Source of the DNA: Flavobacterium psychrolimnae
Lineage (GTDB): Bacteria > Bacteroidota > Bacteroidia > Flavobacteriales > Flavobacteriaceae
DNA: 64,000 nucleotides
Direction: 5' to 3'
Assembly: GCF_003312425.1 (NCBI RefSeq)
Contig: NZ_QNUX01000006.1
Coordinates: forward strand, 163,683 to 227,682
Shown here: positions 20,307 through 34,500 of the stretch, piece by piece
Layout of the letters: each line of letters starts with the position of its first letter
Numbering within the stretch: the first letter of the stretch is position 1
Notes under the pieces: model-generated
Databases searched by the model: none
What the model was told of the DNA's origin: nothing
Seen by the model: only the letters and a program-made list of their open reading frames with translations
Made by a program: the position numbers and the translations under genes

Positions 20307-20322
20307 TATGATTCCAGTCATA
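20307..20322. promoter_or_regulatory. FNR-like box upstream of the nos operon
   Basis: TATGATTCCAGTCATA has the form of an FNR/DNR site (consensus TTGATnnnnATCAA or TTGATnnnnGTCAA). It matches 13 of 16 bases with the site at 30016-30031. Its centre lies 29.5 bases before the near-consensus -7 element CAAATTTG, that is at about -43, a normal activating position. The Spy-like gene is divergent, so an effect on it is possible. Confidence 0.65.
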
Positions 20323-20343
20323 ATTAATGCGCTAATCTAATCG

Positions 20344-20351
20344 CAAATTTG
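20344..20351 (+). promoter_or_regulatory. near-consensus -7 element CAAATTTG of the nos operon
   Basis: One mismatch to TAnnTTTG. The weak element and lack of a good TTG fit an activator-dependent promoter. The start of the cytochrome gene is 26 bases downstream. Confidence 0.5.
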
Positions 20352-20376
20352 TTAAACAATTCTAAAAACAATTTCT

Positions 20377-20865
20377 ATGTACAAATTAACTTTTTTTGTA
20401 GTTGCATTCGTAATGTTGACTTCATGTGGTGATAAAACCAAAACTAATGATGACTTTTCAAAAGATACTGCTGCGCCTTCTGAGGAATCTGCGACAAACC
20501 CAACAGATGCAGTTACGTATGATCCAAATAGAGGTATTGGAAAACACACCTCAGTAGATTTAGGCGATAAATTGGATGTGGCAATGGCTGCCGAAGGAGA
20601 AAAAATCCAATCCGTTAAATGTTCTTCTTGTCACAAATTGACCGATGAGAAATTAGTAGGTCCAGGATGGAAAGGAGTTACTCAAAGACAAAAACCAGAA
20701 TGGATTATGAACTTTATCACCAATCCTGACCCAATGATTGATAAAGACCCAAAACTTCAAGCACAATTAGAACTTTGCTTGGTTCGTATGCCAAATCAAG
20801 CTTTGACAGATGTTGATGCAAGAAACTTGTTGGAATACATGCGTAAAAACGATGGGGTAAAATAA
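20377..20865 (+). CDS. c-type cytochrome lipoprotein of the nos operon
   Basis: 162 residues. Lipoprotein signal (FVMLTSCGDK, Cys at about residue 17), an acidic Ser/Thr-rich linker, then a single-haem cytochrome c domain: CxxCH at KCSSCHKL (about residues 85-91) and a Met-containing C-terminal half (CLVRMPNQALTDVDARNLLEYM) with the likely axial Met. It is the first gene of the operon, 16 bases before nosZ. It is probably the periplasmic electron donor to NosZ, as in other clade II nos clusters; this is inference from position. Confidence 0.9.
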   Translation: MYKLTFFVVAFVMLTSCGDKTKTNDDFSKDTAAPSEESATNPTDAVTYDPNRGIGKHTSVDLGDKLDVAMAAEGEKIQSVKCSSCHKLTDEKLVGPGWKGVTQRQKPEWIMNFITNPDPMIDKDPKLQAQLELCLVRMPNQALTDVDARNLLEYMRKNDGVK

Positions 20866-20881
20866 TTTAATTCAAAATAAA

Positions 20882-22855
20882 ATGAACAATATTTTTATAA
20901 AAACAAGTCTTGCCATAGTTTTGGTTGGTGCATTTTTTGGCTCTTGCAGACCTAAAGATACAGCTGATGCCGTAGGTGGTGACGCAGCTCAAAAAGTCTA
21001 TGTTGCTCCGGGAAAATATGACGAATTCTATAATTTCGTTTCAGGTGGTTTTAGCGGACAAATGAGCGTGTATGGTTTGCCAAGTGCACGATTGTTGAGA
21101 GTAGTTCCAATATTTTCTCAAGATCCACAAAGTGGTTACGGATACAGCGAAGAAACGAAACCAATGTTGAATACTTCTCACGGTTATGTGCCTTGGGATG
21201 ATCAGCACCATTTAGAATTGTCTCAAACCAATGGTGAAGTTGATGGTCGTTGGATTTTTGCTAATGCCAATAACACACCCAGAATTGCCCGTGTTGATTT
21301 GAAAACGTTCAAAACAGTTGAAATAATTGAATTACCGAATAGTGCAGGAAACCACTCTTCTCCATTTATTACTGAAAACACAGAATATGTGGTAGCTGGA
21401 ACCCGATTCAGCGTTCCTACTGATGAAGCTAACGGTGATGTGCCTATTAATACCTACAAAAAAAATTTCAAAGCCTATTTGAGTTTTGTAAAAGTAGGAA
21501 AGGCAGGTGAGATGGATATTGCTTTCCAAATTGAAGCGCCGGGAGTAAATTTCGACTTAAGTCATGCCGGTAAAGGTAAATCTCACGGTTGGTTTTTCTT
21601 CTCTTGTTATAATACAGAACAAGCCAATACTTTGCTGGAAGTGAATGCTTCACAGAATGACAAAGATTATATTATGGCGGTAAACTGGAAAAAAGCTGAA
21701 GAATATATCAAAGCTGGAAAAGGAAAAAAAGTGAAAACTAAATATGTACACAATACTTGGGACGAAAAAACGCATACTGCAAAATCTGAAATGAGAACTG
21801 AAGTATTAGTTTTGGATTCTAAAGTGTTAAAAGACATTTGCTACATGATTCCTTGTCCAAAATCACCTCACGGATGTGATGTTGATCCTACTGGAGAATA
21901 CATCATAGGCAGCGGAAAATTAGCGGCTTTAATTCCTGTCTTTAGTTTTGACAAAATAAAAAATGCTATTGCAAAAAAACAATTTGATGGCGAATATGAA
22001 GGTATTCCTGTTATCAAATATGAGGCTGCTTTATATGGTGAGGTAAAAAAACCGGGATTAGGACCCTTGCACACTGAGTTTGATGGAAAAGGGAATGCGT
22101 ATACCACTTTCTTTGTTTCTTCAGAAGTGGTGAAATGGGACATTAAATCATTGAAAATTTTGGACAGAGTACCTGTTTATTATTCTCCTGGACATCTTTC
22201 TATTCCTGGTGGAGACAGTAAAAAACCATTTGGAAAATACATGGTAGTTTATAATAAAATTACAAAAGACAGATACTTACCAACAGGTCCTGAATTAGCT
22301 CAAAGTGCACAATTGTTTGATATTAGCGGTGTTAAAATGAAGCTTTTGCTGGACTATCCAACTATTGGAGAACCGCATTATGCACAATCTGCTCCAGCTG
22401 ATTTGATTAGAAACAATGGTCAGCTGAAATTTTATAAAATCGAAGAAAATAATCACCCTTTTGTTGCCAAAGGAGAAAAGGAAGCTAAAGTAATCAGAAA
22501 AGGAAACCAAGTTCATGTCTACATGACTTCCATACGTTCTCACTTTGCTTCTGATAATATCGAAGGGGTCAAAGTAGGGGATGAGGTGTATTTTCATGTC
22601 ACTAATTTAGAACAAGATTGGGATGTACCCCATGGATTTGCTATAAAAGGTGCTGATAATGCCGAGTTGTTAATCATGCCGGGTGAAACAGCCACTTTGA
22701 AATGGATACCAAAAAAAATCGGGATATTTCCTTTTTATTGTACTGATTTTTGTAGTGCGTTGCATCAGGAAATGTCAGGATATCTAAGAGTTTCTCCTGC
22801 GGGAAGTAGTGTTCCTTTAACGTTTAGCTTAGGAACAAATATGCCGGCTAAATAA
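20882..22855 (+). CDS. nosZ: nitrous oxide reductase, clade II type
   Basis: 657 residues. Reduces N2O to N2 at a four-copper CuZ centre, with electrons passing through CuA. The signal is a Sec/lipoprotein type (FGSCRPK) with no twin arginines, as in clade II enzymes. CuZ His segments are visible: DDQHHLEL, GNHSSP, SHAGKGKSHG, SPHGCDVDPTG, GPLHTEF and SPGHLSI. The C-terminal cupredoxin domain holds the CuA motif CTDFCSALHQEM (about residues 620-631). A hairpin with a T run follows the stop, so the genes after it may be transcribed less. Confidence 0.97.
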   Translation: MNNIFIKTSLAIVLVGAFFGSCRPKDTADAVGGDAAQKVYVAPGKYDEFYNFVSGGFSGQMSVYGLPSARLLRVVPIFSQDPQSGYGYSEETKPMLNTSHGYVPWDDQHHLELSQTNGEVDGRWIFANANNTPRIARVDLKTFKTVEIIELPNSAGNHSSPFITENTEYVVAGTRFSVPTDEANGDVPINTYKKNFKAYLSFVKVGKAGEMDIAFQIEAPGVNFDLSHAGKGKSHGWFFFSCYNTEQANTLLEVNASQNDKDYIMAVNWKKAEEYIKAGKGKKVKTKYVHNTWDEKTHTAKSEMRTEVLVLDSKVLKDICYMIPCPKSPHGCDVDPTGEYIIGSGKLAALIPVFSFDKIKNAIAKKQFDGEYEGIPVIKYEAALYGEVKKPGLGPLHTEFDGKGNAYTTFFVSSEVVKWDIKSLKILDRVPVYYSPGHLSIPGGDSKKPFGKYMVVYNKITKDRYLPTGPELAQSAQLFDISGVKMKLLLDYPTIGEPHYAQSAPADLIRNNGQLKFYKIEENNHPFVAKGEKEAKVIRKGNQVHVYMTSIRSHFASDNIEGVKVGDEVYFHVTNLEQDWDVPHGFAIKGADNAELLIMPGETATLKWIPKKIGIFPFYCTDFCSALHQEMSGYLRVSPAGSSVPLTFSLGTNMPAK

Positions 22856-22875
22856 GAATCACTTCAAATTCAAGA

Positions 22876-22907
22876 GGGAACAAATTATCTAGTTTGTTCC
22901 CTTTTTT
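22876..22907 (+). terminator. hairpin with T run inside the nos operon (partial terminator)
   Basis: Arms GGGAACAAA and TTTGTTCCC followed by TTTTTT, between nosZ and the nosL fusion gene. It has the form of an intrinsic terminator but lies within the operon, so it may act as an attenuator. Alternatively it may protect the 3' end of a short nosZ transcript. Confidence 0.75.
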
Positions 22908-22919
22908 AATAAAAAAATC

Positions 22920-23936
22920 ATGAATAATCCAAAAATTTCAACGCTTTCAAAAGTGATGCTTTTGTTGGTGATGGTGCTATTAGTGTCATCTGTTTTTGTT
23001 CCAATGTGGAGAATTGAATTGTCAGCTCCTCAATATCCCGAAGGTTTAGTATTGCAGTTACATGCTAATAAAATTGGTGGTGATGTCGAGATTATTAATG
23101 GATTGAACCATTACATTGGCATGAAAACCCTGCATAAAGAAGATTTTATAGAGTTTACCGTATTGCCTTATATTATTGGTTTTTTTGCATTGTGTGCTTT
23201 GGCAGTTGCGGTAATTGCTAAGAAAAAAGGACTTTATGCTTTGTTCATTTCATTTATTCTTTTTGGAATATTAGCAGGAATCGATTTTTACCGATGGAAC
23301 TATGAATATGGGCATAATCTGGATCCTAATGCTGCTATTCAAGTACCCGGAATGTCGTATCAGCCACCATTAATAGGATACAAACAACTCCTGAATTTTG
23401 GAGCGTATTCTATTCCGGATATTGGAGGATGGATGTTAATTGCTTCGGGATTTTTATTGTTTTTATTGGTTATCAAAGAGACTAATCTGTTACAGAAATT
23501 CAAAAAATCAAATCCAACAACAGCTTTGTTTGTCTTTTTATCTTTATCTTTTTTTTCTTGTGCGAAAACAGAAGTGGTTCCCATTAAATTGAACGTTGAT
23601 ACGTGCGATTTTTGCAAAATGACAATCGCCGATGGTAAATATGCGGCAGAAGTGATTAGTGAAAAAGGAAGAGTTTTCAAATTTGACGACATCATGTGTA
23701 TGATACATTATGGAAAAGAAAATGCCAACACAAAAATGGCGGCTCATTATGTGAATGATTATACGCAAGACAATGTTTTAATTCCTGCCAAAACTGCTTT
23801 CTTCCTTTCCGAAGGAACGATTCAAAGCCCTATGAGGGGCGGAATTATTGCTTTTTCTTCTGAAAATGAGGCAAAGGAATTTGGAATAAAATTAAAAGCA
23901 AAACCAGTTACTTGGGGAGCTGTAATTACAAAATAA
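22920..23936 (+). CDS. nosL: NosL copper chaperone fused to an N-terminal membrane domain
   Basis: 338 residues. The first 200 residues form a membrane domain with about four segments (about 12-30, 80-100, 103-122, 170-187) and a periplasmic loop. Then comes a hydrophobic stretch ending in a lipobox-like LSLSFFSCAK (about 206-215), which looks like the old signal of a separate NosL lipoprotein. The NosL domain follows, with the Cu(I)-binding motif CDFCKM (about 228-233) and a FDDIMCMIHY segment. NosL delivers copper for the CuZ centre. The fused form is the usual one in Bacteroidota nos clusters. Confidence 0.9.
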   Translation: MNNPKISTLSKVMLLLVMVLLVSSVFVPMWRIELSAPQYPEGLVLQLHANKIGGDVEIINGLNHYIGMKTLHKEDFIEFTVLPYIIGFFALCALAVAVIAKKKGLYALFISFILFGILAGIDFYRWNYEYGHNLDPNAAIQVPGMSYQPPLIGYKQLLNFGAYSIPDIGGWMLIASGFLLFLLVIKETNLLQKFKKSNPTTALFVFLSLSFFSCAKTEVVPIKLNVDTCDFCKMTIADGKYAAEVISEKGRVFKFDDIMCMIHYGKENANTKMAAHYVNDYTQDNVLIPAKTAFFLSEGTIQSPMRGGIIAFSSENEAKEFGIKLKAKPVTWGAVITK

Positions 23937-23962
23937 ACCAGTCGTTTTTTGAATCAGTAAAA

Positions 23963-23989
23963 AATTAAGAAAAGTGTGTTTTCTTAATT
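23963..23989. repeat. perfect inverted repeat between nosL and nosD
   Basis: AATTAAGAAAA and TTTTCTTAATT around the loop GTGTG, an 11-base perfect stem inside the 81-base spacer. There is no long T run, so it is more likely an RNA-processing or stability hairpin than a terminator. Confidence 0.6.
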
Positions 23990-24017
23990 AAATTCAGATG
24001 GTTTAATTTTAAAAATA

Positions 24018-25247
24018 ATGAAAAAACTCATCTACATATTTCTGTTTTTTTCTTCATTCCTTCATGCGCATGTGATTGAAGTTGGCGCTAATAAACCTGT
24101 AAAATCAATAAAAAAAGCCATTAGTCTGGCTAAAATTGGTGACACGGTTTTAGTTCATAAAGGTGTTTATCGAGAAGGCAATATTGTTATTGATAAAAGA
24201 ATTGTTTTTCTGGGTAAAGGATATCCGGTTTTAGATGGACAAAAAAAGTATGAAGTACTTTCCATTAAAGCGGATAGTGTGGTTGTGCAAGGTTTTAAAG
24301 TGATAAAATCAGGGTATGCTTCACTCGAAGATCCCTGTGCGATTAAAGTGTACAATAAAAGCCATGTTATTATTCAGAACAATATTCTAGATGATAATTT
24401 CTTTGGAATTTATATCCAAAATGGTAAAAACTGCCTGATAAAAAACAATACCATTGTAGCGTATGGCAAAGAAGAACAGCAAATAGGCAACGGAATTCAT
24501 TGTTGGAAAAGTGAAAATCTCCAAATTATCGCCAACACTATTTCTGGTCACCGGGATGGGATTTATTTTGAATTTGTGACCAATTCCGTTATCTGGAGAA
24601 ATATTTCAACTAACAATATTCGGTATGGTTTGCATTTTATGTTCTCTAATGACGACGCTTATATTACCAATATTTTCAAGAATAACGGTGCCGGCGTTGC
24701 GGTAATGTTTACCAAAAATGTCAAGATGTTCAATAACTATTTCGAAGAAAATTGGGGCGATGGCGCTTATGGATTATTCCTCAAGGAAATCACGGACAGT
24801 CACATCATTGGAAATAAATTTTCTAAAAACACTTCTGGAATTCATATGGAAGGAACCAATCGGATTCGGGTTGAAAAAAATGTATTTGAAGCCAATGGTT
24901 GGGCCATGAAAATCCAGGCCAGTTGCGTAGACAATGAAATCGTGAATAATAATTTTATTGGAAATACTTTTGATATGGGAACTAACGGAAGTTTAGTTTT
25001 AAACAAGTTCGATACCAATTATTGGGATAAATACGAAGGATACGATTTGGACAAAAATGGAGTTGGCGATGTGCCGTATCATCCGTTGAGTTTATTTGCC
25101 GTTTTAGTTGAAAATAATCCCTCGGCGATGTTGCTGTTCCGGAGTTTCATGATCACACTTTTGGATAAATCCGAAAAAGTGTTGCCTAGTATAACCCCAG
25201 ATAATTTTATTGACAATTCGCCATTAATGCATTCATTACCATTATGA
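24018..25247 (+). CDS. nosD: nitrous oxide reductase maturation protein NosD
   Basis: 409 residues. Sec signal (MKKLIYIFLFFSSFLHAHV), then a right-handed beta-helix of carbohydrate-binding/sugar-hydrolase (CASH) type with many repeated Asn-rich turns (VIIQNNILDDNFFGIYIQ, CLIKNNTIV, LQIIANTISGHRDGIYFE and others). It ends with the NosD-type segment DTNYWDKYEGYDLDKNGVGDVPYHP. NosD is a periplasmic factor that works with the NosFY transporter in building CuZ. The last 4 bases overlap the start of nosF (ATGA). Confidence 0.95.
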   Translation: MKKLIYIFLFFSSFLHAHVIEVGANKPVKSIKKAISLAKIGDTVLVHKGVYREGNIVIDKRIVFLGKGYPVLDGQKKYEVLSIKADSVVVQGFKVIKSGYASLEDPCAIKVYNKSHVIIQNNILDDNFFGIYIQNGKNCLIKNNTIVAYGKEEQQIGNGIHCWKSENLQIIANTISGHRDGIYFEFVTNSVIWRNISTNNIRYGLHFMFSNDDAYITNIFKNNGAGVAVMFTKNVKMFNNYFEENWGDGAYGLFLKEITDSHIIGNKFSKNTSGIHMEGTNRIRVEKNVFEANGWAMKIQASCVDNEIVNNNFIGNTFDMGTNGSLVLNKFDTNYWDKYEGYDLDKNGVGDVPYHPLSLFAVLVENNPSAMLLFRSFMITLLDKSEKVLPSITPDNFIDNSPLMHSLPL

Positions 25248-25966
25248 TTGAAATAAAAAATATATATAAAAAATTTGGAAAATTAGAGGTTTTAAATAAT
25301 GTCAATCTTTCTTTTAAAAAAGGAGAATGCATTGCTCTAATTGGTCCAAATGGCTGTGGAAAAACCACTTTGATAAAAAGTATTTTGGGAATGGTCATTC
25401 CTTCTAAAGGCGATATTTTATTCAATGAAAAATCAATTTTAAGGGAATTTAAATATCGGGAACAAATAGGCTACATGCCGCAAATAGGGCGTTATCCGGA
25501 TTATATGACAGTTGGGCAAATCATCGAAATGATAAAGAAAATTCGAAATTCGGATCAGGTTTTAGATGAGGATTTAGTCCATGCATTTCAACTCGAAAAA
25601 ATAGTAGACAAACAAATGCGGACACTTTCGGGTGGAACAACGCAAAAAGTAAGTGCTACGTTGGCTTTTTTGTTTAATCCTGAGGTGTTGATTTTAGACG
25701 AACCTACAGCGGGATTAGATCCATTGGCTTCCGAAATATTAAAAGAGAAAATTATAAAAGAAAAAGAAAAGGGAAAACTAATCTTGATTACTTCCCATCT
25801 TTTGAGCGAATTAGATGATTTGATTACGCAAATTATTTACATGCAAGACGGAACAGTGCATTTTCATCAAACCATCGCCGATTTATTGGAAACAACAAAC
25901 GAACAAAAAATATCCAAAGCAATTGCCAAAATTCTAAAAAACAAAAGCAATGAACAGAATCATTAA
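25244..25966 (+). CDS. nosF: ABC transporter ATP-binding protein NosF
   Basis: 240 residues. All ABC ATPase motifs are present: Walker A GPNGCGKTT (about residues 34-42), Q-loop YMPQIG, signature LSGGTTQKV (about 127-135), Walker B VLILDEPTAGLDP, and the H-loop TSHLLSELDD. It pairs with NosY to drive the step that matures the CuZ site of NosZ. It overlaps nosD by 4 bases and nosY by 17, so the three are translationally coupled. Confidence 0.95.
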   Translation: MIEIKNIYKKFGKLEVLNNVNLSFKKGECIALIGPNGCGKTTLIKSILGMVIPSKGDILFNEKSILREFKYREQIGYMPQIGRYPDYMTVGQIIEMIKKIRNSDQVLDEDLVHAFQLEKIVDKQMRTLSGGTTQKVSATLAFLFNPEVLILDEPTAGLDPLASEILKEKIIKEKEKGKLILITSHLLSELDDLITQIIYMQDGTVHFHQTIADLLETTNEQKISKAIAKILKNKSNEQNH

Positions 25967-26717
25967 AATCATTTTTCTAGACATTCTGAAGAACAAGATT
26001 ATATTGGCGTACACGCTTATTTTAGCCATTCTTTCGTGGAGTTCATTTGGGCTGGAAGACAATTCTGCCAAAGGATTACTTACCATTTTGAATATAATTT
26101 TATTCACGGTTCCGCTAGTTTCCATTCTTTTTGCCACGATTTATTTGTACAATAGTACAGAGTTTATTGAGCTTTTATTAAGCCAGCCCATTAAACGCAA
26201 GAAAATTTGGTTGAGTCTGTTTCTCGGACTTTCGTTAGCAATGGTTTTAGCCTTTTTTATTGGTGCCGGAATTCCGCTTTTAATCAATGCGCCGGATAGC
26301 GTAGGCATTATGATGCTCGTCATAGGTTGTCTGATTACGTTGGTCTTCGTGGCTTTGGCATTTTTAAGTTCGATACTCACCAGAGACAAGGCAAAAGGAA
26401 TAGGTATTGCCATCATGGGTTGGTTGTATTTTGCACTGCTTTTTGATGGAATAATTTTGTATTTGCTGTTTCAATTTTCAGATTACCCAATAGAGAAAGC
26501 AATGATTGTTGTTACGGCGTTCAGCCCAATTGATTTAGCCCGAATTCAAATCCTGTTGCATCTGGATGTTTCGGCAATGATGGGATATACCGGAGCAATT
26601 TTTAAAGATTTTTTCGGGACATCATTGGGACTGCTTCTTTCTTTTTCGTTATTGTGTTTGTGGATTATTATTCCATTTTTCATTTCATTAATTAAATTTA
26701 AAAACAAAGATTTATAA
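25950..26717 (+). CDS. nosY: ABC transporter permease NosY
   Basis: 255 residues with six likely membrane segments and the ABC-2/NosY pattern (LSQPIKRKKIWLSLFLGLSLAM, then a cytoplasmic RDKAKGIGIAIMGWLYFALLFDGI block, and SPIDLARIQILLHLDVSAMMGYTGA). The NosFY pair acts with NosD in CuZ assembly. Its stop codon shares an A with the ATG of the next gene (TAATG). Confidence 0.93.
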   Translation: MNRIIKIIFLDILKNKIILAYTLILAILSWSSFGLEDNSAKGLLTILNIILFTVPLVSILFATIYLYNSTEFIELLLSQPIKRKKIWLSLFLGLSLAMVLAFFIGAGIPLLINAPDSVGIMMLVIGCLITLVFVALAFLSSILTRDKAKGIGIAIMGWLYFALLFDGIILYLLFQFSDYPIEKAMIVVTAFSPIDLARIQILLHLDVSAMMGYTGAIFKDFFGTSLGLLLSFSLLCLWIIIPFFISLIKFKNKDL

Positions 26718-27010
26718 TGTTTAAAGATATACTTCAAAAACTAGAAAATGCTGCTAATCCAGTGGCGCAAGTGGTTCAAAATACTTCTTGCAGTAAAGTA
26801 ATGGTAATTGCTTTCAAAAAAGGAATGATTCTCAAGGAGCATAAAACTGATGTTCCTGCTAAATTATTAGTGATAAAAGGTAACGTGATTTATAAAGAGG
26901 AGAACCAACAAAACGAACTCTTTCTTTATGACGAACAAGAAATTCCGGTAGCAGTTTTGCATTCCGTAGAAGCATTGGAAGACAGTTTGTGTTTATTGTT
27001 TAAAGGCTAA
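26717..27010 (+). CDS. small cupin-like protein
   Basis: 97 residues. A single small cupin-like barrel is suggested by FKKGMILKEHKTDVPAKLLVIKGNVIYKEENQQ. Some typical metal-binding His residues are missing; only EHKTD and a later LHSVEA remain. It is translationally coupled to nosY. Small cupins occur beside N-oxide genes in Bacteroidota, perhaps as sensors or haem/NO-related accessory proteins. Function unknown. Confidence 0.75.
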   Translation: MFKDILQKLENAANPVAQVVQNTSCSKVMVIAFKKGMILKEHKTDVPAKLLVIKGNVIYKEENQQNELFLYDEQEIPVAVLHSVEALEDSLCLLFKG

Positions 27011-27021
27011 AAAATCTAGAA

Positions 27022-27393
27022 ATGAAAACAGATATAAAAAACAGAAACGACATTGAGAAGCTGATAAACACTTTCTACGGTAAAATAAAAACAGATACTA
27101 AAATCGGTTATTTTTTTACGGATGTAGCCAAGTTGAATTGGGAAGAGCACTTGCCGAAAATGTATGATTTCTGGGAGAATATTATGTTTTCGAAAGGGAA
27201 TTATACCGGAAACCCGATGACTAAGCATAAAGAATTACATCAAAAAAGTGAAATGAAAGAAGCTCATTTTAAGCATTGGAATGCCTTGTTCAATGAAACT
27301 GTTGATGAGTTATTCACAGGAGAAAAAGCTGAAGAAATCAAACAAAGAGCGATGAATATTTCGGGTGTATTGATGTACAAAACAATAGGTTGA
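27022..27393 (+). CDS. group III truncated haemoglobin (second copy in window)
   Basis: 123 residues. Same pattern as the protein at 10382: INTFYGKIKTDTKIGYFF, EEHLPKMYDFWENIMF, MTKHKELHQ, and the proximal-His segment EAHFKHWNALF. It starts 11 bases after the cupin gene and ends just before a terminator, so it is the last gene of the nos operon. That position suggests a role in NO or O2 handling during N2O respiration. The two copies are clearly diverged and are not a recent duplication. Confidence 0.9.
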   Translation: MKTDIKNRNDIEKLINTFYGKIKTDTKIGYFFTDVAKLNWEEHLPKMYDFWENIMFSKGNYTGNPMTKHKELHQKSEMKEAHFKHWNALFNETVDELFTGEKAEEIKQRAMNISGVLMYKTIG

Positions 27394-27401
27394 AAAGCAT
27401 A

Positions 27402-27436
27402 AAAAAAGCGTGAACTATTTTAGTTTACGCTTTTTT
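27402..27436. terminator. terminator at the end of the nos operon (bidirectional)
   Basis: AAAAAAGCGTGAACT and AGTTTACGCTTTTTT pair with one G-T wobble. A and T runs on both sides serve the convergent fasciclin gene as well. Confidence 0.85.
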
Positions 27437-27462
27437 CAATCTGGCAAAATGAATTAATAATA

Positions 27463-28020
27463 TTATTTTTTTGGAAGTAAAACATCATTGATTACGTGTA
27501 TAATTCCGTTTGATGTTGGGATTGAAGTTACTATTTCGGAACCATTTACAAATACTTTATCACCTACTTTGGTGATTTTTATTTTTCCGGCATTTACTTG
27601 TTCATATTCCTGCCCGTCTTGCATGTACTCTGTTTTTAGATTTCCTACGTAAGTATGATACTCTAATATGTTTTTCAAATCATCTTTTTTCTCGGGTTTC
27701 AATAGTTCTTCAACGGTTCCCTTTGGGAGTTTATCAAAAGCAGCGTTTGTTGGTGCAAAAACGGTAAACGGTCCGGCATTGCTCAATACATCCACTAATC
27801 CTGCTGCTTTTACGGCTGTTACAAGTGTGGAGTGATCTTTGCTTCCGGAGGCTGTCTGAACGATATTTGGACTAGAAGCTTCGTCGACCACGGCAGACTG
27901 TCCAGGACCTTGGGTTGCTGTATTTTCTGTTGTTGTTTCAGATGGAGCTTCGCTATTTTGTTTGCAGCCAAAAATGGTAAAGAAACAAACGACGGCTACT
28001 AATTGAATTGATTTTTTCAT
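27463..28020 (-). CDS. fasciclin domain lipoprotein
   Basis: 185 residues from the ATG at 28020, which gives the proper lipoprotein signal MKKSIQLVAVVCFFTIFGC. An upstream in-frame start at 28050 would only add a non-signal-like extension. After a Ser/Thr/Glu-rich linker comes one fasciclin (FAS1) domain at about residues 55-185, with the two conserved blocks GPFTVFAPTNAAFDKLP and NGIIHVINDVLLP. FAS1 domains usually mediate adhesion. Proteins of this kind also occur beside denitrification genes in Bacteroidota, but their role there is unknown. Confidence 0.9.
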   Translation of the reverse strand: MKKSIQLVAVVCFFTIFGCKQNSEAPSETTTENTATQGPGQSAVVDEASSPNIVQTASGSKDHSTLVTAVKAAGLVDVLSNAGPFTVFAPTNAAFDKLPKGTVEELLKPEKKDDLKNILEYHTYVGNLKTEYMQDGQEYEQVNAGKIKITKVGDKVFVNGSEIVTSIPTSNGIIHVINDVLLPKK

Positions 28021-28087
28021 AATTAAGGTTACTTTGGTTTTATATAGCAAAGTACTTAATTATCAATTGTTTATTCTATGCGTTCAA

Positions 28088-29320
28088 TCATAAAGGCGGG
28101 TTGTTTTTAACTTTTTTGATAGAAAAATAAGTAGTAAACCCGATTCCTAAAAGCAAGAGTAAGGCGACAACGAAAAGAAGTTCATTTACATACGGAATAA
28201 TAGTATAAGTGAACGATGCAATACCTTGAATGGCGAGAACCAACTCGTTTAATAGAACGCCAATGGAAAATAGAACCAAGCCAATTTTTATCTTTTTATT
28301 GATAATAATCAGATGACTGGCATAGATGTAAAACAACAAGAACAACGTGATTACCGCCAATAAAACCAAGTGTAAATAGGCGATTACAATTGGTCTGAAA
28401 CCAAAGGCAAGCTGGCTTAAAGATGGGATTGTTGAACCCAATTGCAGAATGAATTTTATGCTTAATGCCAAACAGGAAAAGAGTAAAATATAGCGTAACA
28501 ATGAAGCGAAATTTTTCAGATACTCTTTTTGTTTTTGTATTAAAATTAAAAGAAGTTTAAACCATGCAAAAACCTGAATTATTGCTGCAAAGACAGAGAT
28601 TGTGTAAAGCCAAACGGGTAAATCCAACCAAAGTGTGGACAAAAAATAGGCAGGAATACAAGAAACAGCAAACAGCTTAAAGGAAGTTTCGTAAAAGGAA
28701 TGTTCTGATTTTTTTAGATTTAAAAAGCCAAAAAACAAACCAATACAACCAAAGAAAAACCAACCGTTATATTGAAAATGGAGAAAATAATAGATAGATG
28801 ATAAGTACAAATCCTGAATGACATTTTTACTTGCCATCATGTAAGCCAAGTAAAAAGTTCCGAAAGAAGAAATAATATTAAAAAATAAGGCGGCCTTAAG
28901 CCAGTTTATTGCAGCAAAATCAGCATCCAGTTTTCTTAAATCTTTGATGTAATAATAGCCAAAAACATAGGAAACCAAGATCGATGCTGTTGAGAAAAAG
29001 ATGGAAATCATTCCGTAGCCCTGAAAGATAAAGAAAATCAGCATCCCGTAAGAACAAATTAGATTGGCTATGAGTATTTTTCGGTATTTATGTACTTGAA
29101 AGTTGGCAGTTTTATTCTGAAGATAATACACCATCAACGTCATCAAAGTATGGGTGATCCATCCTGAAAATGCAAAATGGGAATGGGAATGTAATATGTT
29201 TTTTTGATTGAAATAAGGGAATTCAAAACCAATTTTATAACGCATTAAAACCCCAAGTGAGGCGACAATACATAGATTTAGCAACGAAAATTTTAGCCAG
29301 AATTGTATGTTTAATTTCAT
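28088..29320 (-). CDS. polytopic membrane protein, haem-copper oxidase-like
   Basis: 410 residues with about twelve hydrophobic segments and little else. His residues lie where a haem-copper oxidase subunit I or NnrS-like protein would have metal ligands: HSHSHFAFSGWITHTLMTLM (first third), YYFLHFQYNGWFFFGCIGLFF (middle) and AYLHLVLLAVITLFL (late). The HPEVY and HH motifs of true oxidases are not seen, so it is unlikely to be a complete oxidase. It lies 6 bases after the Crp/Fnr gene and is probably transcribed with it. A role in N-oxide or NO response is inferred. Confidence 0.7.
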   Translation of the reverse strand: MKLNIQFWLKFSLLNLCIVASLGVLMRYKIGFEFPYFNQKNILHSHSHFAFSGWITHTLMTLMVYYLQNKTANFQVHKYRKILIANLICSYGMLIFFIFQGYGMISIFFSTASILVSYVFGYYYIKDLRKLDADFAAINWLKAALFFNIISSFGTFYLAYMMASKNVIQDLYLSSIYYFLHFQYNGWFFFGCIGLFFGFLNLKKSEHSFYETSFKLFAVSCIPAYFLSTLWLDLPVWLYTISVFAAIIQVFAWFKLLLILIQKQKEYLKNFASLLRYILLFSCLALSIKFILQLGSTIPSLSQLAFGFRPIVIAYLHLVLLAVITLFLLFYIYASHLIIINKKIKIGLVLFSIGVLLNELVLAIQGIASFTYTIIPYVNELLFVVALLLLLGIGFTTYFSIKKVKNNPPL

Positions 29321-29326
29321 TTTTTT

Positions 29327-29920
29327 TTAATAAAATATTTTGTGATTGATGATGTCAACTTTGTTGCAATCATTCATTTTCGAAAAAACCCGAATCACCG
29401 TTTCGACTCTCAAACCGGTAAAATTTGCAATTTCCTGACGCGTGTAAGGAATTAATACTTTTTGGTCATTACATTCCGATTTTCTTTTGTGTGTGTTCAA
29501 AAAAGCAAGAATTCTAAACTCCGGTTTCTGGTTGATGATCTCTTTTGAAGTATTGGATTTTGAATGAATTTTATTGGCAAGTAAAACCAAAAATGATTTT
29601 TGAATTAAAGGATATTCATCAAGAATTTTTAAAAATTTATCTTTTGATAACTTCATAATGGTACAATCTTGAATGCAAACTGCTTTTGACGGATATGGTT
29701 GGTCAATAAACAATGGAGGTTCGCCAAAACTCTCTCCTTTACAAAAAAGTCCTTGTGTGAACTCTTTTCCTTCGTCATTTGAATTAAACATTCTCACGCT
29801 TCCATCAATAATTTGATAATAAAAATGGGCCACTTCATCTTCATTAAAAACTACTTCGTTTTTTTTGTATTTTTTCGCAACAGCACCCCAAGAAAAAAGT
29901 AAATCTATGTCTATTTGCAT
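29327..29920 (-). CDS. Crp/Fnr family transcriptional regulator
   Basis: 197 residues from the ATG at 29920 (MQIDIDLLFSWG). A longer frame to 29971 runs into the promoter region and is rejected. N-terminal cyclic-nucleotide-type sensor barrel (VVFNEDEVAHFYYQIIDGSVRM, CKGESFGEPPLF), a long dimer helix, then a C-terminal helix-turn-helix (YTRQEIANFTGLRVETVIRVFSKM) whose recognition helix has the E-T-V-I-R pattern of the FNR/DNR group. No N-terminal Cys cluster is seen, so it should not carry an FNR-type Fe-S centre; a DNR-like NO/haem sensor is possible. It lies between the nos genes and the divergent gene at 30195, with an FNR-like box in the gap. Confidence 0.92.
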   Translation of the reverse strand: MQIDIDLLFSWGAVAKKYKKNEVVFNEDEVAHFYYQIIDGSVRMFNSNDEGKEFTQGLFCKGESFGEPPLFIDQPYPSKAVCIQDCTIMKLSKDKFLKILDEYPLIQKSFLVLLANKIHSKSNTSKEIINQKPEFRILAFLNTHKRKSECNDQKVLIPYTRQEIANFTGLRVETVIRVFSKMNDCNKVDIINHKIFY

Positions 29921-29969
29921 AATTAAAGTGGATTTAAGAATGTGTTTTTTTTGCAAGTAATTAGGACGC

Positions 29970-29992
29970 ATATTTGCAATTGCTGCAAATAT
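29970..29992. promoter_or_regulatory. perfect palindrome overlapping the regulator promoter
   Basis: Arms ATATTTGCA and TGCAAATAT around a 5-base centre. The right arm contains most of the regulator's own -7 element, so binding here could block it. It differs from the FNR-like boxes. Confidence 0.5.
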
Positions 29993-29993
29993 A
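29986..29993 (-). promoter_or_regulatory. -7 promoter element TATATTTG of the Crp/Fnr gene
   Basis: An exact TAnnTTTG match on the minus strand. The FNR-like box at 30016-30031 is centred 30.5 bases upstream, nearly the same spacing as at the nos promoter. Confidence 0.6.
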
Positions 29994-30015
29994 ATTTCTA
30001 TAAATTTAACAATAT

Positions 30016-30031
30016 TATGATTGTAATCATA
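30016..30031. promoter_or_regulatory. FNR-like box between the regulator and the gene at 30195
   Basis: TATGATTGTAATCATA: seven-base arms TATGATT and AATCATA around two bases. It fits the FNR consensus at 8 of 10 defined positions. It is placed symmetrically between two divergent -7 elements (29993 and 30053), so it could activate both genes. Confidence 0.7.
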
Positions 30032-30052
30032 CTAGAGAAGTGTAAAATATAT

Positions 30053-30060
30053 TGTTTTTG
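30053..30060 (+). promoter_or_regulatory. near-consensus -7 element TGTTTTTG for the gene at 30195
   Basis: One mismatch to TAnnTTTG. Its start is 29.5 bases from the centre of the FNR-like box, exactly as at the nos operon. The leader to the ATG would be about 130 bases. Confidence 0.45.
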
Positions 30061-30194
30061 AAATAATCTTAAAATAGTGACTAAAATGGCTAAAGTATTT
30101 TATTAAAGTATTATAGCGTATGATATTTATCAGTTTTTATAGTTTTTAGTTTCTCGACTTTTGTGGTTTATTTATTTATTTAAATCATTTTAAC

Positions 30195-32009
30195 ATGACA
30201 ACACGTAAACCACTACATACTTTTCATATCCCCGTTATGGGACTTGCTTATACGATTGATAGTCCGATACGAGTGGCAAAGTATGGAATTTCGTCTGTGA
30301 TTTCAATTATGGATGATGAACTTATCGAAAAAATGAATGCTTTTTATAGCAAGAAATTCGATTTGCCGTATCAGGAAATTACCCAAAAAATACATGATTA
30401 CCGCGCAGAACGCATTACTTCTTATTTGAATTTGGTAGACAAAATCGTGAAGGAAAAATTTGAAAACTTTAAGACGGAATTATCCGAAAGCAAATCAGCT
30501 TTGGAAAATTACATCGCGATGCTACCCAACAAATCAGCCATTAAAGCAGGCCTGCAAAACTTGATGGAAGACGGTTTCGCTTTCAAAGAAAACATCAAAA
30601 ATTATCTGGAGAAAAATCTTTATCCGGGCGATATTGATGTCAATATTATGACCAAATTAGATAAGGATAATTTCATCAAAGAGGAACAATTACCCATTAT
30701 TTTTAATGACGCACATGCCGCGCTTCGTGGGTTTGTGAACAGTACATTAGAATCTTCAGTAGTTTTATCGGCTGGGATGAATCCAAGATTATACAGCTAT
30801 TTTGAAAGTTTTTCGGCCTTCTTTCCGGATGCGAATAATGCACTGAAAAAGAAAATTACGCTGAAAGTAAGCGACTTTCGTTCGGCAATGATTCAAGGGA
30901 ATTTTTTAGCTAAAAAAGGACTTTGGGTTTCTGAATATCGAATCGAATCCGGACTGAATTGTGGCGGACATGCTTTTGCTACCGAAGGCTATTTGTTGGG
31001 ACCGATTCTAGAAGAATTCAAACAGAAAAAAGAACAATTAATTCAATCTGCTCATGAGTTGATGGTGAAAGCATTGGGACAAAAAGAAATGCATGTTCCA
31101 GAACAGCCTTTGGATTTAAAAATCACGGTTCAAGGCGGCGTGGGAACTGCTGAAGAACACGATTTTCTATTGGATCATTATGAGGTGGATTCTGTGGGTT
31201 GGGGTTCGCCTTTTTTATTGGTTCCTGAAGCCACTTCGGTAGATAAACACACCAGAGATTTATTGGCTGGAGCCAAAGAAGATGATTTATATTTAAGTCA
31301 TATTTCTCCGTTGGGAATTCCTTTCAATACTTTGCGAGGCACGACGAATGAAAAATTGAAATTGAAACGAATTGAAGAAAGCAAAGCAGGAAGTTCGTGT
31401 CCAAAACGATTTTTGGCGTTAAGCAAAGAATACGATGCGAAAGGAATTTGTACATCTTCCAAGAAATATCAAGACTTAAAACTGGAAGAATTACTACTTC
31501 AAAAAGATATTTTACCGGCAGAAATTTTTGAAAAAAAGAAAAATAGTATTACTGAGAAAGCCTGTCTTTGTGTGGGTTTAGCCAATGCTTCGTATCTTGA
31601 AAATGACATTAAGATAAAAGGGCAGGCGCAGGGTGTAATCATTTGTCCAGGACCTAATATGGCTTATTTTGACAAAGAAGTTTCACTGTTAAAAATGGTG
31701 CAGCACATTTATGGAAACGCATCTGTATTGACGGTTACCAATCGACCAAATCTATTTGTGAAAGAGTTAAAAATGTATTTGGATTATCTGAAAAATGAAA
31801 TCACAGCGGTTACGGAAGAAATCACTGTGGGACAGATTAAAAAATGGAATTCGTTCAAAAATAATTTGCTGCAAGGAATTGGATATTATGAAGATTTATT
31901 TTCAACAACTCCTTTTTTCGAAAGCACTAAAAATGAGATTTTCAGTCAATTCGATTGCTATAAAACGGAATTAAACGAGATTGAAATTCCCGAATTGAAA
32001 TTGGCATAA
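30195..32009 (+). CDS. conserved protein of unknown function with Cys motifs, probable Fnr regulon member
   Basis: 604 residues, no signal peptide or membrane segment, so cytoplasmic. I do not recognise the family with certainty. The N-terminal 200 residues are mostly helical and charged. The middle has LNCGGHAFATEGYLLGPI and ITVQGGVGTAEEHDFLL, followed by VDSVGWGSPFLLVPEAT, which looks like part of a TIM-barrel flavin enzyme. Further Cys lie in SSCPKRF, GICTSSKKY and KACLCVGLAN; together they could bind an iron-sulfur cluster. The FNR-like box upstream and the nos neighbourhood suggest an anaerobic redox role (inference). It is followed by a strong terminator. Confidence 0.75.
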   Translation: MTTRKPLHTFHIPVMGLAYTIDSPIRVAKYGISSVISIMDDELIEKMNAFYSKKFDLPYQEITQKIHDYRAERITSYLNLVDKIVKEKFENFKTELSESKSALENYIAMLPNKSAIKAGLQNLMEDGFAFKENIKNYLEKNLYPGDIDVNIMTKLDKDNFIKEEQLPIIFNDAHAALRGFVNSTLESSVVLSAGMNPRLYSYFESFSAFFPDANNALKKKITLKVSDFRSAMIQGNFLAKKGLWVSEYRIESGLNCGGHAFATEGYLLGPILEEFKQKKEQLIQSAHELMVKALGQKEMHVPEQPLDLKITVQGGVGTAEEHDFLLDHYEVDSVGWGSPFLLVPEATSVDKHTRDLLAGAKEDDLYLSHISPLGIPFNTLRGTTNEKLKLKRIEESKAGSSCPKRFLALSKEYDAKGICTSSKKYQDLKLEELLLQKDILPAEIFEKKKNSITEKACLCVGLANASYLENDIKIKGQAQGVIICPGPNMAYFDKEVSLLKMVQHIYGNASVLTVTNRPNLFVKELKMYLDYLKNEITAVTEEITVGQIKKWNSFKNNLLQGIGYYEDLFSTTPFFESTKNEIFSQFDCYKTELNEIEIPELKLA

Positions 32010-32093: not shown

Positions 32094-32101
32094 TAATTTT
32101 G
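32094..32101 (+). promoter_or_regulatory. -7 promoter element TAATTTTG, four bases before a GTG start
   Basis: An exact TAnnTTTG match. The predicted transcription start falls on or next to the GTG at 32106, so the mRNA may have almost no leader. Confidence 0.5.
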
Positions 32102-32105
32102 CACC

Positions 32106-32480
32106 GTGAAAAAAATCATATTCATAATTGTATTAATCATGCTTATAAAGCCAGTTCTTCCGGTTTTAGAGTATGTCGTGAATTATGAATACATTTCAAA
32201 AGTACTTTGTATTAATAAGGACAAACCTAAAATGCAATGTAACGGAAAATGTCATTTGATGAAAGAATTAGCCAAAGCTTCTGAGGCTGAAAAGCCACTT
32301 TCTTCCGATAAAAAAGGAAATGCTCCTATACTTGATGTGATCATTTTTGAGGAAATTAAATCTTTCGAAATTGTAACAGTTTTTTTTGATACCAAAGAAA
32401 AAATAAACCCGCATTATTCTAATTTATATGCTCGCTTGAATAGTGCTTCTGTTTTTCACCCACCCACTTTCATTTCATAA
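32106..32480 (+). CDS. small membrane-anchored protein with CxxxC copper-like motif
   Basis: 124 residues from a GTG start (MKKIIFIIVLIMLIKP). One N-terminal membrane segment, then the compact Cys motif MQCNGKCHLMKEL (about residues 43-55; Cys, Cys, His and Met close together), as would suit Cu(I) binding. The C-terminal half is Lys/Asp-rich and ends with FHPPTFIS. Proteins of this plan occur beside copper genes in Flavobacteriia. It is the first gene of a block with MbnP-like, MbnH-like and outer-membrane proteins. Confidence 0.75.
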   Translation: MKKIIFIIVLIMLIKPVLPVLEYVVNYEYISKVLCINKDKPKMQCNGKCHLMKELAKASEAEKPLSSDKKGNAPILDVIIFEEIKSFEIVTVFFDTKEKINPHYSNLYARLNSASVFHPPTFIS

Positions 32481-32616
32481 ATTTTTTAAGCATGTAGTAT
32501 GCTTTATTTCTTCCGTTCTAAACAACGGATGAAAATTTGTTTGCTTTTTTTGGAAATAATAATCCAAATATGGCATGCGAAACAGTACTTATATTCAAAA
32601 TAAAAAACTTTAAGAA

Positions 32617-33399
32617 ATGAAATTTCAATTAAAAAATATACTAGCTGTAATGGCTATCTCAGTTACCTTGTTTTCTTGCTCTAATGATTATGATAATGAA
32701 ATGATTACCGGAAACGGAAATTTAAAATTAGAATTTGACAACGTGTATAAATCGGCTAATTTTGCTTTCAATACGAACTATACCAATTCGAATGCTGAGG
32801 TTGTAGCGGTTTCAAAAGTGAAGTACATCGTGAGTAATATTGTCTTGACAAAAGAGGATGGAACTACCTTTACATACCCAAAAAGTCAAAGCTATTTTAT
32901 TGTAGATGAAGCTACGCCTGCAACATTAGTATTGAATCTTTCAAACATTCCTGCTGGAAATTACACTAAAGTAAAATACGGAATTGGAGTCGATAAAACG
33001 CAGTGGGAAGCAGGAGCAACGGGTCAAGGAGATTTCTTGGCAACAGCCCAAACTGCCGGAATGATGTGGTCTTGGAGTGCAGGTTATAAGTTTGTGGCTT
33101 TCGAAGGTACTTTTACAGCTCCTACGGTAACAACGGCAAAAGAGTTTAAAGTACATACCGGACAAACTGGAACTGATTATAATTATGCTGAAGTTACTTT
33201 GAGTTTTCCTGAAAATGCTTTGGTACGAACTACAATTACACCTCAGGTTCACATCATGACGGATTTGTCTCAAGTTATAGATGGAACTAATAAAATCAAT
33301 CTTACGGAAGCGGCAACTGTTATGGGAGGCGCTAAACTGGCTTTGGTTACTACTAACGTTTCTTCTATGTTCAAAATAGACCACGTTCACAACGATTAA
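32617..33399 (+). CDS. MbnP family lipoprotein
   Basis: 260 residues. Lipoprotein signal (MAISVTLFSCSND, Cys at about residue 21), then the MbnP pattern: GNLKLEFDNV, VKYIVSNIVLTKEDGT, YGIGVDKTQWEAG, MMWSWSAGYKFVAFEGTF, and a C-terminal KIDHVHND tail with two His. MbnP proteins work with a di-haem enzyme (MbnH) that oxidises a Trp of MbnP to create a copper-binding site. The next gene is exactly such an enzyme. The phrase MWSWSAGYKF contains the likely Trp region. Confidence 0.9.
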   Translation: MKFQLKNILAVMAISVTLFSCSNDYDNEMITGNGNLKLEFDNVYKSANFAFNTNYTNSNAEVVAVSKVKYIVSNIVLTKEDGTTFTYPKSQSYFIVDEATPATLVLNLSNIPAGNYTKVKYGIGVDKTQWEAGATGQGDFLATAQTAGMMWSWSAGYKFVAFEGTFTAPTVTTAKEFKVHTGQTGTDYNYAEVTLSFPENALVRTTITPQVHIMTDLSQVIDGTNKINLTEAATVMGGAKLALVTTNVSSMFKIDHVHND

Positions 33400-33408
33400 T
33401 TTTTAATC

Positions 33409-33446
33409 AAAAAGCGGTTGGAAATTAAATCTCCGACCGCTTTTTT
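33409..33446 (+). terminator. hairpin with T run between the MbnP-like and MbnH-like genes
   Basis: AAAAAGCGGT and ACCGCTTTTT, extended by GGA/TCC with one wobble. A terminator within the pair may reduce expression of the second gene. Confidence 0.75.
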
Positions 33447-33459
33447 AAAAAAATATAAA

Positions 33460-34500
33460 ATGAAAGCAAAATATATCATATTGCTCATTTTTCCGTTGCT
33501 GTGGTCTTGTTCTGCTGATGAAAGCGAAGACTATCAGGACATTCCTCTGAACTTTCAAGTTCCGGCAAATTTCCCGCCTTTGGCATACGATCTGATGAAT
33601 AATCCACCTACAGAAAAAGGATTTGAACTGGGGAAAAAACTTTTCTACGACGGTCGATTGGCTTCGGACGGGATTGTTTCCTGCGGATTTTGTCACATTC
33701 AGGAAGATGCATTTACGCATCACGGCCATACTTTGAGTCATGGAGTAGATGACGCTATTGGAACCCGAAACACGCCACCAATCCAGAATTTGGCCTATCA
33801 AACCACTTTTATGTATGATGGTGCAGCATCGCATTTGGATTTACAGCCTATTATTCCGTTCACAAGTCCTGTAGAAATGAATGGCGATTTTGCAAAAGCG
33901 ATTGCTATGATGAAAGGCGATCCAGTGTATCAGAAATTATTCAAAGTTGCTTTTACGGATGGACAAATCAATTCCGAAAACATGCTCAAAGCCTTGGGAC
34001 AGTTTATGGTCATGGTTACGTCCTCGAATTCCCGTTTCGATAAGTACCGCCGAAATGAATCTGGCGGAACGCTCACGCAAGACGAGAAGGACGGTTATGC
34101 AATTTTCAACCAAAAATGTTCCAGTTGTCACGCCACAGATTTGTTTACGGACAATTCTTTTAGAAACAATGGCTTGCCAATTGATCCCGCGTACAATGAT
34201 ATCGGTCGTTTTCGTGTGACGGAGTTGCCTCAGGATAAGTATAAATTCAAAGTGCCAAGTCTAAGAAATATAGAAAAAACAGCGCCTTACATGCACGATG
34301 GACGCTTATTTACATTGGAAGCCGTGATGGATCATTACAATTCCGGTGTAGTCAATTCAGCTACTTTAGACCCCATTTTGAATAAATACGGGTCACTCGG
34401 AATCCCTTTGACAGCGACAGAAAAATCAAAAATTATTGCTTTTCTAAAAACATTGACAGACACGCAATACCTAACAGACAAGCGCTTTTCTGAATATTAA
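33460..34500 (+). CDS. MbnH-like di-haem cytochrome c peroxidase family protein
   Basis: 346 residues from the ATG at 33460, which gives a lipoprotein signal (KYIILLIFPLLWSCSAD). A longer frame starts with a TTG inside the terminator hairpin and is rejected. Two haem-binding motifs are present: CGFCH (about residue 72) and CSSCH (about 217), plus the family blocks GKKLFYDGRLASDG, GTRNTPPIQNLAYQ, MYDGAASHLDLQ and KVPSLRNIEKTAPYMHDGR. It probably oxidises its MbnP neighbour to build a copper site, rather than acting on peroxide in general. Confidence 0.92.
   Translation: MKAKYIILLIFPLLWSCSADESEDYQDIPLNFQVPANFPPLAYDLMNNPPTEKGFELGKKLFYDGRLASDGIVSCGFCHIQEDAFTHHGHTLSHGVDDAIGTRNTPPIQNLAYQTTFMYDGAASHLDLQPIIPFTSPVEMNGDFAKAIAMMKGDPVYQKLFKVAFTDGQINSENMLKALGQFMVMVTSSNSRFDKYRRNESGGTLTQDEKDGYAIFNQKCSSCHATDLFTDNSFRNNGLPIDPAYNDIGRFRVTELPQDKYKFKVPSLRNIEKTAPYMHDGRLFTLEAVMDHYNSGVVNSATLDPILNKYGSLGIPLTATEKSKIIAFLKTLTDTQYLTDKRFSEY

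What the first reader, a model, noticed from the sequence alone, without database searches (positions are those of the whole stretch)
20307..30060. Shared FNR-like box before the nos operon and an unknown gene, with identical spacing
TATGATTCCAGTCATA (20307) and TATGATTGTAATCATA (30016) agree at 13 of 16 bases. Each centre is exactly 29.5 bases from a one-mismatch -7 element (CAAATTTG at 20344, TGTTTTTG at 30053), which puts both near -43. The second box is also 30.5 bases from the -7 element of the divergent Crp/Fnr gene. Seen directly: the sites and spacing. Known: FNR/DNR proteins bind TTGATnnnnATCAA-like sites near -41.5 to activate. Inferred: the regulator at 29327 activates itself, the nos operon and the gene at 30195.
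Basis: partly seen in the sequence, partly recalled or inferred. Interest (0 to 1): 0.75.

Follow-up and report, generated by a model that had tools for sequence, protein, structure and literature searches.

The report
Two look-alike switches for N2O breakdown
Matching DNA boxes sit before the N2O-reductase genes and before a nearby regulator gene and are likely read by that regulator, whereas the third gene said to share the switch has its own, subtly different box that is likely read by the cell's separate oxygen-type (FNR) regulator.

Summary
The sites and spacing are exactly as described, and far beyond chance. The box at 30016 is the only perfect TATGAT-N4-ATCATA in 3.65 Mb. Both boxes would be centred at -41.5, the classic class II activator position. 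The nos box has T at position 7 and A at position 10 ("T-class") in all 23 readable loci, window included. In 150 genomes of the genus, T-class promoters occur in 61 of 71 genomes with the regulator family and 4 of 79 without it. Their targets include nos, NorC-like, flavohaemoglobin and ScdA/RIC genes, so a nitrogen-oxide regulon is likely. Gene 30195 has its own box at 30119 with A7/T10 ("A-class", 21 of 21 loci with a box), kept also in genomes lacking the regulator family. A-class boxes mark cbb3-oxidase promoters and track a cysteine-rich FNR homologue. Both regulators carry an ExxIR recognition helix, so they probably share TATGA half-sites and are told apart by the inner flanking base. 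The regulator-plus-nos part of the reading is supported, self-activation mostly, and control of gene 30195 is not. There are no binding or expression data.

The parts
20307..20322 (+). T-class box TATGATTCCAGTCATA of the nos operon
   Evidence: T7/A10 in 23 of 23 readable loci
20344..20351 (+). -7 element CAAATTTG of the nos promoter; predicted start 20356, leader 21 nt
   Evidence: position rule from PMC9723704
20377..20865 (+). cytochrome c gene (likely lipoprotein), first gene of the nos operon
   Evidence: Pfam PF00034
20882..22855 (+). Sec-type N2O reductase NosZ (clade II, recalled equivalence)
   Evidence: TIGR04246, 925.8 bits against cut-off 625
28088..29320 (-). 410-aa membrane protein downstream of the regulator; predicted haem-copper oxidase/NorB fold
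29327..29920 (-). Crp/Fnr regulator (likely start at 29920; ORF to 29971), recognition helix RVETVIR
   Evidence: PF00027, PF13545; helix in 72 of 72 distinct relatives
29986..29993 (-). -7 element TATATTTG of the regulator promoter; predicted start 29981
30016..30031 (.). T-class box TATGATTGTAATCATA of the regulator promoter (palindrome)
   Evidence: only exact TATGATNNNNATCATA in the genome
30119..30134 (+).
   Evidence: A7/T10 in 21 of 21 loci with a box; kept in 7 of 7 aligned sequences
30156..30163 (+). -7-like element GACTTTTG of gene 30195, 21 bases after the box; predicted start 30168, leader 27 nt
30195..32009 (+). 604-aa protein without Pfam domain; predicted FabK/FabX-type FMN barrel with invariant cysteines
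32094..32101 (+). TAATTTTG before the small gene at 32106, with no box seen at promoter distance; in 12 of 14 relatives examined the homologue of this gene is divergent from the regulator

Best explanation
The boxes before the nos operon and before the regulator gene are likely sites of the Crp/Fnr regulator encoded at 29327, which would switch on N2O reductase from the class II (-41.5) position, probably in response to NO or a related nitrogen oxide. Gene 30195 carries a separate box (30119) of a second class, likely read by the cysteine-rich FNR homologue that sits beside the cbb3-oxidase operon elsewhere in the genome. The two proteins have similar recognition helices (RVETVIR and TATESCIR, both ExxIR). 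They would therefore share TATGA half-sites and be told apart mainly by the base just inside each half-site: T7/A10 for the nitrogen-oxide regulator, A7/T10 for FNR. Shown: sites, spacing, conservation, co-occurrence and helices. Inferred: binding, activation, signal and the discrimination rule.
For: T-class promoters: 139 matches in 65 of 150 genomes (control 2); in 61 of 71 genomes with the regulator family (best E 2.4e-40 or lower; the next genome is at 1.4e-16) and 4 of 79 without, Fisher p 2.8e-26. Split: 31 of 34 genomes with an orthologue (53% identity or more) and 30 of 37 with only a 36-43% paralogue. A-class: 105 of 150 genomes (control 6); in 101 of 135 genomes with FNR and 4 of 15 without, p 3e-4. 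Among 64 genomes with FNR but no regulator family, 45 have A-class and 3 have T-class. Targets of the 30 fetched T-class loci: nos cytochrome 5, flavohaemoglobin 4, NorC-like/ScdA-RIC 2, a 95-aa gene beside a regulator paralogue 14, others 5, none at cbb3. Of 30 A-class loci, 19 are at cbb3 operons and none at nos, nor or hmp (one representative of most kinds checked). Helices invariant within each group, 72/72 and 18/18; seven cysteines shared by 18 of 18 FNR relatives, none fixed in the regulator relatives. Near regulators with no adjacent nos lie NirK (L077), qNOR-type (L057), NorB-like, ScdA/RIC-like and anaerobic ribonucleotide-reductase-like genes.
Against: No binding, expression or start-site data. 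The regulator's own box is T7/A10 in only 12 of 28 loci and missing in 5 relatives, so the classes are not watertight there and FNR may also act on it. Ten genomes with the regulator family lack a T-class match and four have a match without it. Nearly half (14 of 30) of the T-class loci examined lie beside the paralogue, not the orthologue. One A-class hit precedes a nirK gene (L163; TIGR02376 above cut-off), a nitrogen-oxide gene. The species are related, so the Fisher values overstate independence. The gene-30195 box has a CAGT/CAGG right half that differs from other A-class boxes, so a third reader is possible. In this genome the COX1 model finds no NorB-type protein, so the source of NO is unclear.
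Confidence: 0.72

Rival explanations
1. One regulator (the gene at 29327) reads all boxes, including that of gene 30195.
For: Same left half-site and same 21-base gap at all three; gene 30195 is adjacent in this clade.
Against: Gene 30195 orthologues keep the A-class box in genomes without the regulator family (G007, G010, G029, G094, G130). The box class is 23/23 T7/A10 at nos against 21/21 A7/T10 at gene 30195. The 30016 box is lost in 3 of 6 relatives with the gene adjacent.
Confidence: 0.08
2. The FNR homologue alone (low oxygen) controls everything, and the gene at 29327 plays another role.
For: Both recognition helices are ExxIR, and FNR is in 135 of 150 genomes.
Against: In 64 genomes with FNR but without the regulator family only 3 have T-class promoters, against 61 of 71 with both.
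Confidence: 0.1
3. Cascade with overlap: FNR helps to switch on the regulator gene (mixed-class boxes) and the regulator then drives nos. This is compatible with the best explanation for nos and gene 30195.
For: Regulator boxes are T/T, A/A or A/T in 5 of 28 loci. FnrL-Dnr cascades are described for Dinoroseobacter (PMC5398030, start of abstract, passages).
Against: 23 of 28 regulator boxes are T/A or T/G, and the window's own is a perfect T-class palindrome.
Confidence: 0.3

Closest known systems
DNR / NnrR (NO-responsive Crp/Fnr activators of denitrification in Proteobacteria)
   Same: Crp/Fnr protein with no fixed cysteines, encoded beside nos or nor-type genes, sites at the class II position before nos and NO-related genes
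   Different: Half-site TATGAT instead of TTGAT (DNR, recalled) or TTGcg (NnrR consensus in PMC1274295, passages seen); helix ExxIR; no curated family matches above cut-off; NO sensing untested
FNR / FixK-type oxygen regulators
   Same: The second regulator (226 aa) has an N-terminal CxxC and further conserved cysteines and sits beside cbb3 genes; its boxes precede cco and hemN, typical FNR targets (recalled)
   Different: TATGA half-site followed by A, ExxIR helix, and a cysteine layout that differs from E. coli FNR (recalled)
FnrL/DnrD pair of Dinoroseobacter shibae (PMC5398030)
   Different: Alphaproteobacterial, TTGAC-type half-sites, experimentally studied; here Bacteroidota with TATGA half-sites and inference only
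HcpR (PMC1274295, passages seen)
   Same: Crp/Fnr control of nitrogen-oxide genes, with helix and motif changing together
   Different: CRP-like or TTGAC motifs and hcp targets; not compared here by tree

Membership tests
Crp/Fnr superfamily (protein at 29327) | cNMP_binding plus HTH_Crp domains above curated cut-offs | tested here: met
   PF00027 70.3 bits (cut-off 27.5), PF13545 31.7 bits (cut-off 27)
DNR/NnrR | Encoded with, and boxes before, nir/nor/nos genes | tested here: met
   in the own genome only nos and the regulator carry T-class boxes
DNR/NnrR | Match to a curated family model at its cut-off | tested here: not met
   Best NCBIfam hit 56.7 bits against cut-off 266; closest solved structures 3h3z/3fx3, then DNR 3dkw at E 2.6e-12
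DNR/NnrR | Haem-based NO response | not testable with these tools
   needs purified protein
FNR (protein at 29327) | N-terminal cysteine cluster | tested here: not met
   No cysteine position common to the relatives; some have none at all
FNR (second regulator, P0002) | N-terminal cysteine cluster | tested here: inconclusive
   C4, C7, C53, C59, C106, C132 and one near residue 193 in 18 of 18 relatives; cluster not shown
Class II activation | Site centred near -41.5 | tested here: met
   -41.5 (nos, gene 30195) and -42.5 (regulator), given the -12 to -5 rule of PMC9723704; start sites not mapped
FabX/FabK (gene 30195) | FMN TIM-barrel fold with catalytic-histidine motif | tested here: inconclusive
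FabX (gene 30195) | [4Fe-4S] cysteines spaced as C300-C304-C308-C320 | tested here: not met
   Invariant cysteines are C256, C402, C419, C457, C459, C484; spacing from PMC8626469 (passages)

The most novel reading that the evidence does not exclude
Two Crp/Fnr regulators in one cell use the same TATGA half-sites and are insulated from each other by a single symmetric base. In this genome, where no NO reductase of the haem-copper type was found, the nitrogen-oxide regulon has shrunk to nos and itself, making it a dedicated N2O-reductase switch that senses outside NO or even N2O itself.
Probability: 0.15. Interest if true: 0.85.

Novelty: new variant of a known kind. Interest (0 to 1): 0.55.

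Why it matters
Clade II N2O reducers such as Flavobacterium are of interest as sinks for a greenhouse gas. The listings of my library searches (open-licence papers only) showed no paper on how they switch nos on. A predicted operator, its regulator and its promoter position make this directly testable. The pair also gives a clean natural case of how close paralogues may divide nearly identical sites.

Tried and rejected
Rejected: chance. Rejected: the right-hand -7 at 30053 as main promoter of gene 30195. It is kept in only 2 of the 6 relatives aligned (L045, L046), and a 130-nt leader is long beside 21 and 27 nt. Not found: a NO reductase in the own genome; the COX1 model finds three proteins, whose best NCBIfam matches are cbb3 or aa3 oxidases, two of them (C5 and C17) below the model cut-off. 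That model could miss divergent members: it also misses the 410-aa protein with the same fold. nirK/nirS were not searched in the own genome (cap reached). Weak spots: L069 carries a gene 30195 homologue without a box, behind a cytochrome c and a NorB-like gene. L048 was left out of the gene-30195 count because the N-terminus did not match, L070 out of the nos count (too little upstream sequence) and L073 out of the regulator count. One of the 23 nos-cytochrome loci (L056) has no nosZ in the locus. F. sandaracinum (L046) has a 9-base deletion between box and -7 of gene 30195. misread 12 of 30 loci that are stored in reverse; replace it: in the 8 genus-level loci of that set, own included, all 8 have the A7/T10 box before gene 30195; of 22 loci outside the genus 3 have any box (L194, L196, L197, same family), only L196 clearly A7/T10. 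A profile search of the gene-30195 family against PDB sequences found nothing, so its identity rests on fold alone. Gene labels not checked by a family model (ccoN in L165, nrdD-like, U32, most repeats of a kind) are my reading of the sequences; NorB labels for L069 and L077 rest on context, since NCBIfam gave only weak oxidase matches.
Full report
Observation. Both boxes, the -7-like elements and the distances are exactly as reported. Exact TATGATNNNNATCATA occurs once in the 3.65-Mb genome, at the 30016 box. Box plus NNNNTTTG after 19-23 bases gives 13 matches against 0 in the reversed control. Five of the 13 matches are at promoter distance: nos, the two directions of the 30016 box, hemN (TIGR00538 above cut-off) and a ccoI-type ATPase gene. 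Six of the rest lie inside reading frames and two were not assigned. With the Flavobacterium rule that the -7 element spans -12 to -5 (PMC9723704, passages seen), the nos box is centred at -41.5 and the regulator box at -42.5.

Conservation. The regulator was followed into 33 loci, mostly from records named Flavobacterium, 53-100% identical. The nos box is present in every readable nos-cytochrome promoter: 23 of 23 loci including the window, all T7/A10, nearly all followed by ATTTG at the -7 position. The regulator promoter has a box in 28 loci including the window (12 T/A, 11 T/G, 3 T/T, 1 A/A, 1 A/T), none in 5, and one was not testable. In 11 of 33 loci the box is flanked on both sides by TAnnTTTG at exactly 22 bases, that is, a symmetric divergent promoter.

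Gene 30195. In 12 of 14 relatives examined the gene divergent from the regulator is not this one but the homologue of the small gene at 32106, mostly followed by lipoprotein-like and TonB-receptor-like genes; in the window 32106 is followed by an MbnP protein and a MauG-type di-haem peroxidase. Gene 30195 has its own box at 30119 (TATGATATTTATCAGT, 21 bases, GACTTTTG), giving a 27-nt leader instead of 130 nt. This box is found 63-79 bases before the gene in 21 of 21 loci with a box, always A7/T10. One further homologue (L069) has none and one (L048) was not readable. In the alignment of seven sequences with the gene adjacent, 3 of the 6 relatives have lost the 30016 box while all 7 keep the 30119 box. 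In a genus-wide scan with this variant of the box, 16 of the 30 fetched loci are orthologues of gene 30195. Five of these are in genomes with no member of the regulator family (G007, G010, G029, G094, G130). In a separate phylum sample, 8 of 8 genus-level loci have the box, against 3 of 22 loci outside the genus.

Two classes, two regulators. Over 150 genomes of the genus, own included, the general box plus TTTG occurs in 123 (control matches 20 in all, matches not totalled). Split by the inner base, the T-class (T7/A10) is in 65 genomes with 139 matches (control 2), and the A-class (A7/T10) is in 105 (control 6). The regulator family is in 71 (best E 2.4e-40 or lower); T-class occurs in 61 of these and in 4 of the other 79 (Fisher p 2.8e-26). 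By kind: 31 of 34 genomes with an orthologue, 30 of 37 with only the paralogue. The FNR homologue is in 135 genomes; A-class is in 101 of these and 4 of the other 15 (p 3e-4). Of 64 genomes with FNR but no regulator family, 45 have A-class and 3 T-class. Of 71 with both, 56 have A-class and 61 T-class. Relatedness inflates these p values.

Targets. Of 30 fetched T-class loci: 5 nos cytochrome genes, 4 flavohaemoglobins (NF009805 above cut-off for L138), 2 with a NorC-like gene and ScdA/RIC on either side, 14 a 95-aa gene beside a ~42% regulator paralogue, 1 small Cys gene like 32106, 1 NarK-like MFS transporter, 1 Rrf2, 1 with no family, 1 without a near gene. None is at cbb3 genes. Of 30 A-class loci: 19 at cbb3 operons (8 ccoI-type, 10 FixS/ccoS-type, 1 ccoN-type), 3 MFS transporters, 1 nirK (TIGR02376), 1 Usp, 1 U32 peptidase-like, 1 HypA and 4 unassigned. 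One representative of most kinds was checked with family models. In the own genome the A-class users found are ccoI, ccoS, hemN and gene 30195, and the T-class users are nos and the regulator.

Verdict. Known: FNR/DNR logic, class II position. New here, as far as my searches show: a TATGA-type operator for nos in Bacteroidota, split between two regulators by one inner base. All binding and signal steps are inferred.

Noticed in passing
   Followed up: partly
window 28088-29320: 410-aa membrane protein present beside the regulator in 32 of 33 loci (not L067); predicted haem-copper oxidase fold, invariant H46, H57, H181, H317 but no adjacent His-His pair in the window's copy.
   Followed up: partly
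window 32094-34500: Small Cys gene, MbnP and MauG-type peroxidase: a possible copper-uptake set whose first gene faces the regulator's box in 12 of 14 relatives examined but is separated from it here by gene 30195.
   Followed up: partly
L081 and 13 similar loci: A regulator paralogue (about 42% identity) with a T-class box directly downstream of it, before a 95-aa membrane-type protein without Pfam domain; relatives in the 35-50% band share the RVETVIR helix.
   Followed up: no
L056:10001-13000: F. hiemivividum keeps the regulator and the nos cytochrome gene with its box, but no nosZ was found in the 20-kb locus.
   Followed up: no
own genome G000: The COX1 model finds only three proteins, all closest to cbb3 or aa3 oxidases, so this strain may reduce N2O without a haem-copper NO reductase.
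   Followed up: partly
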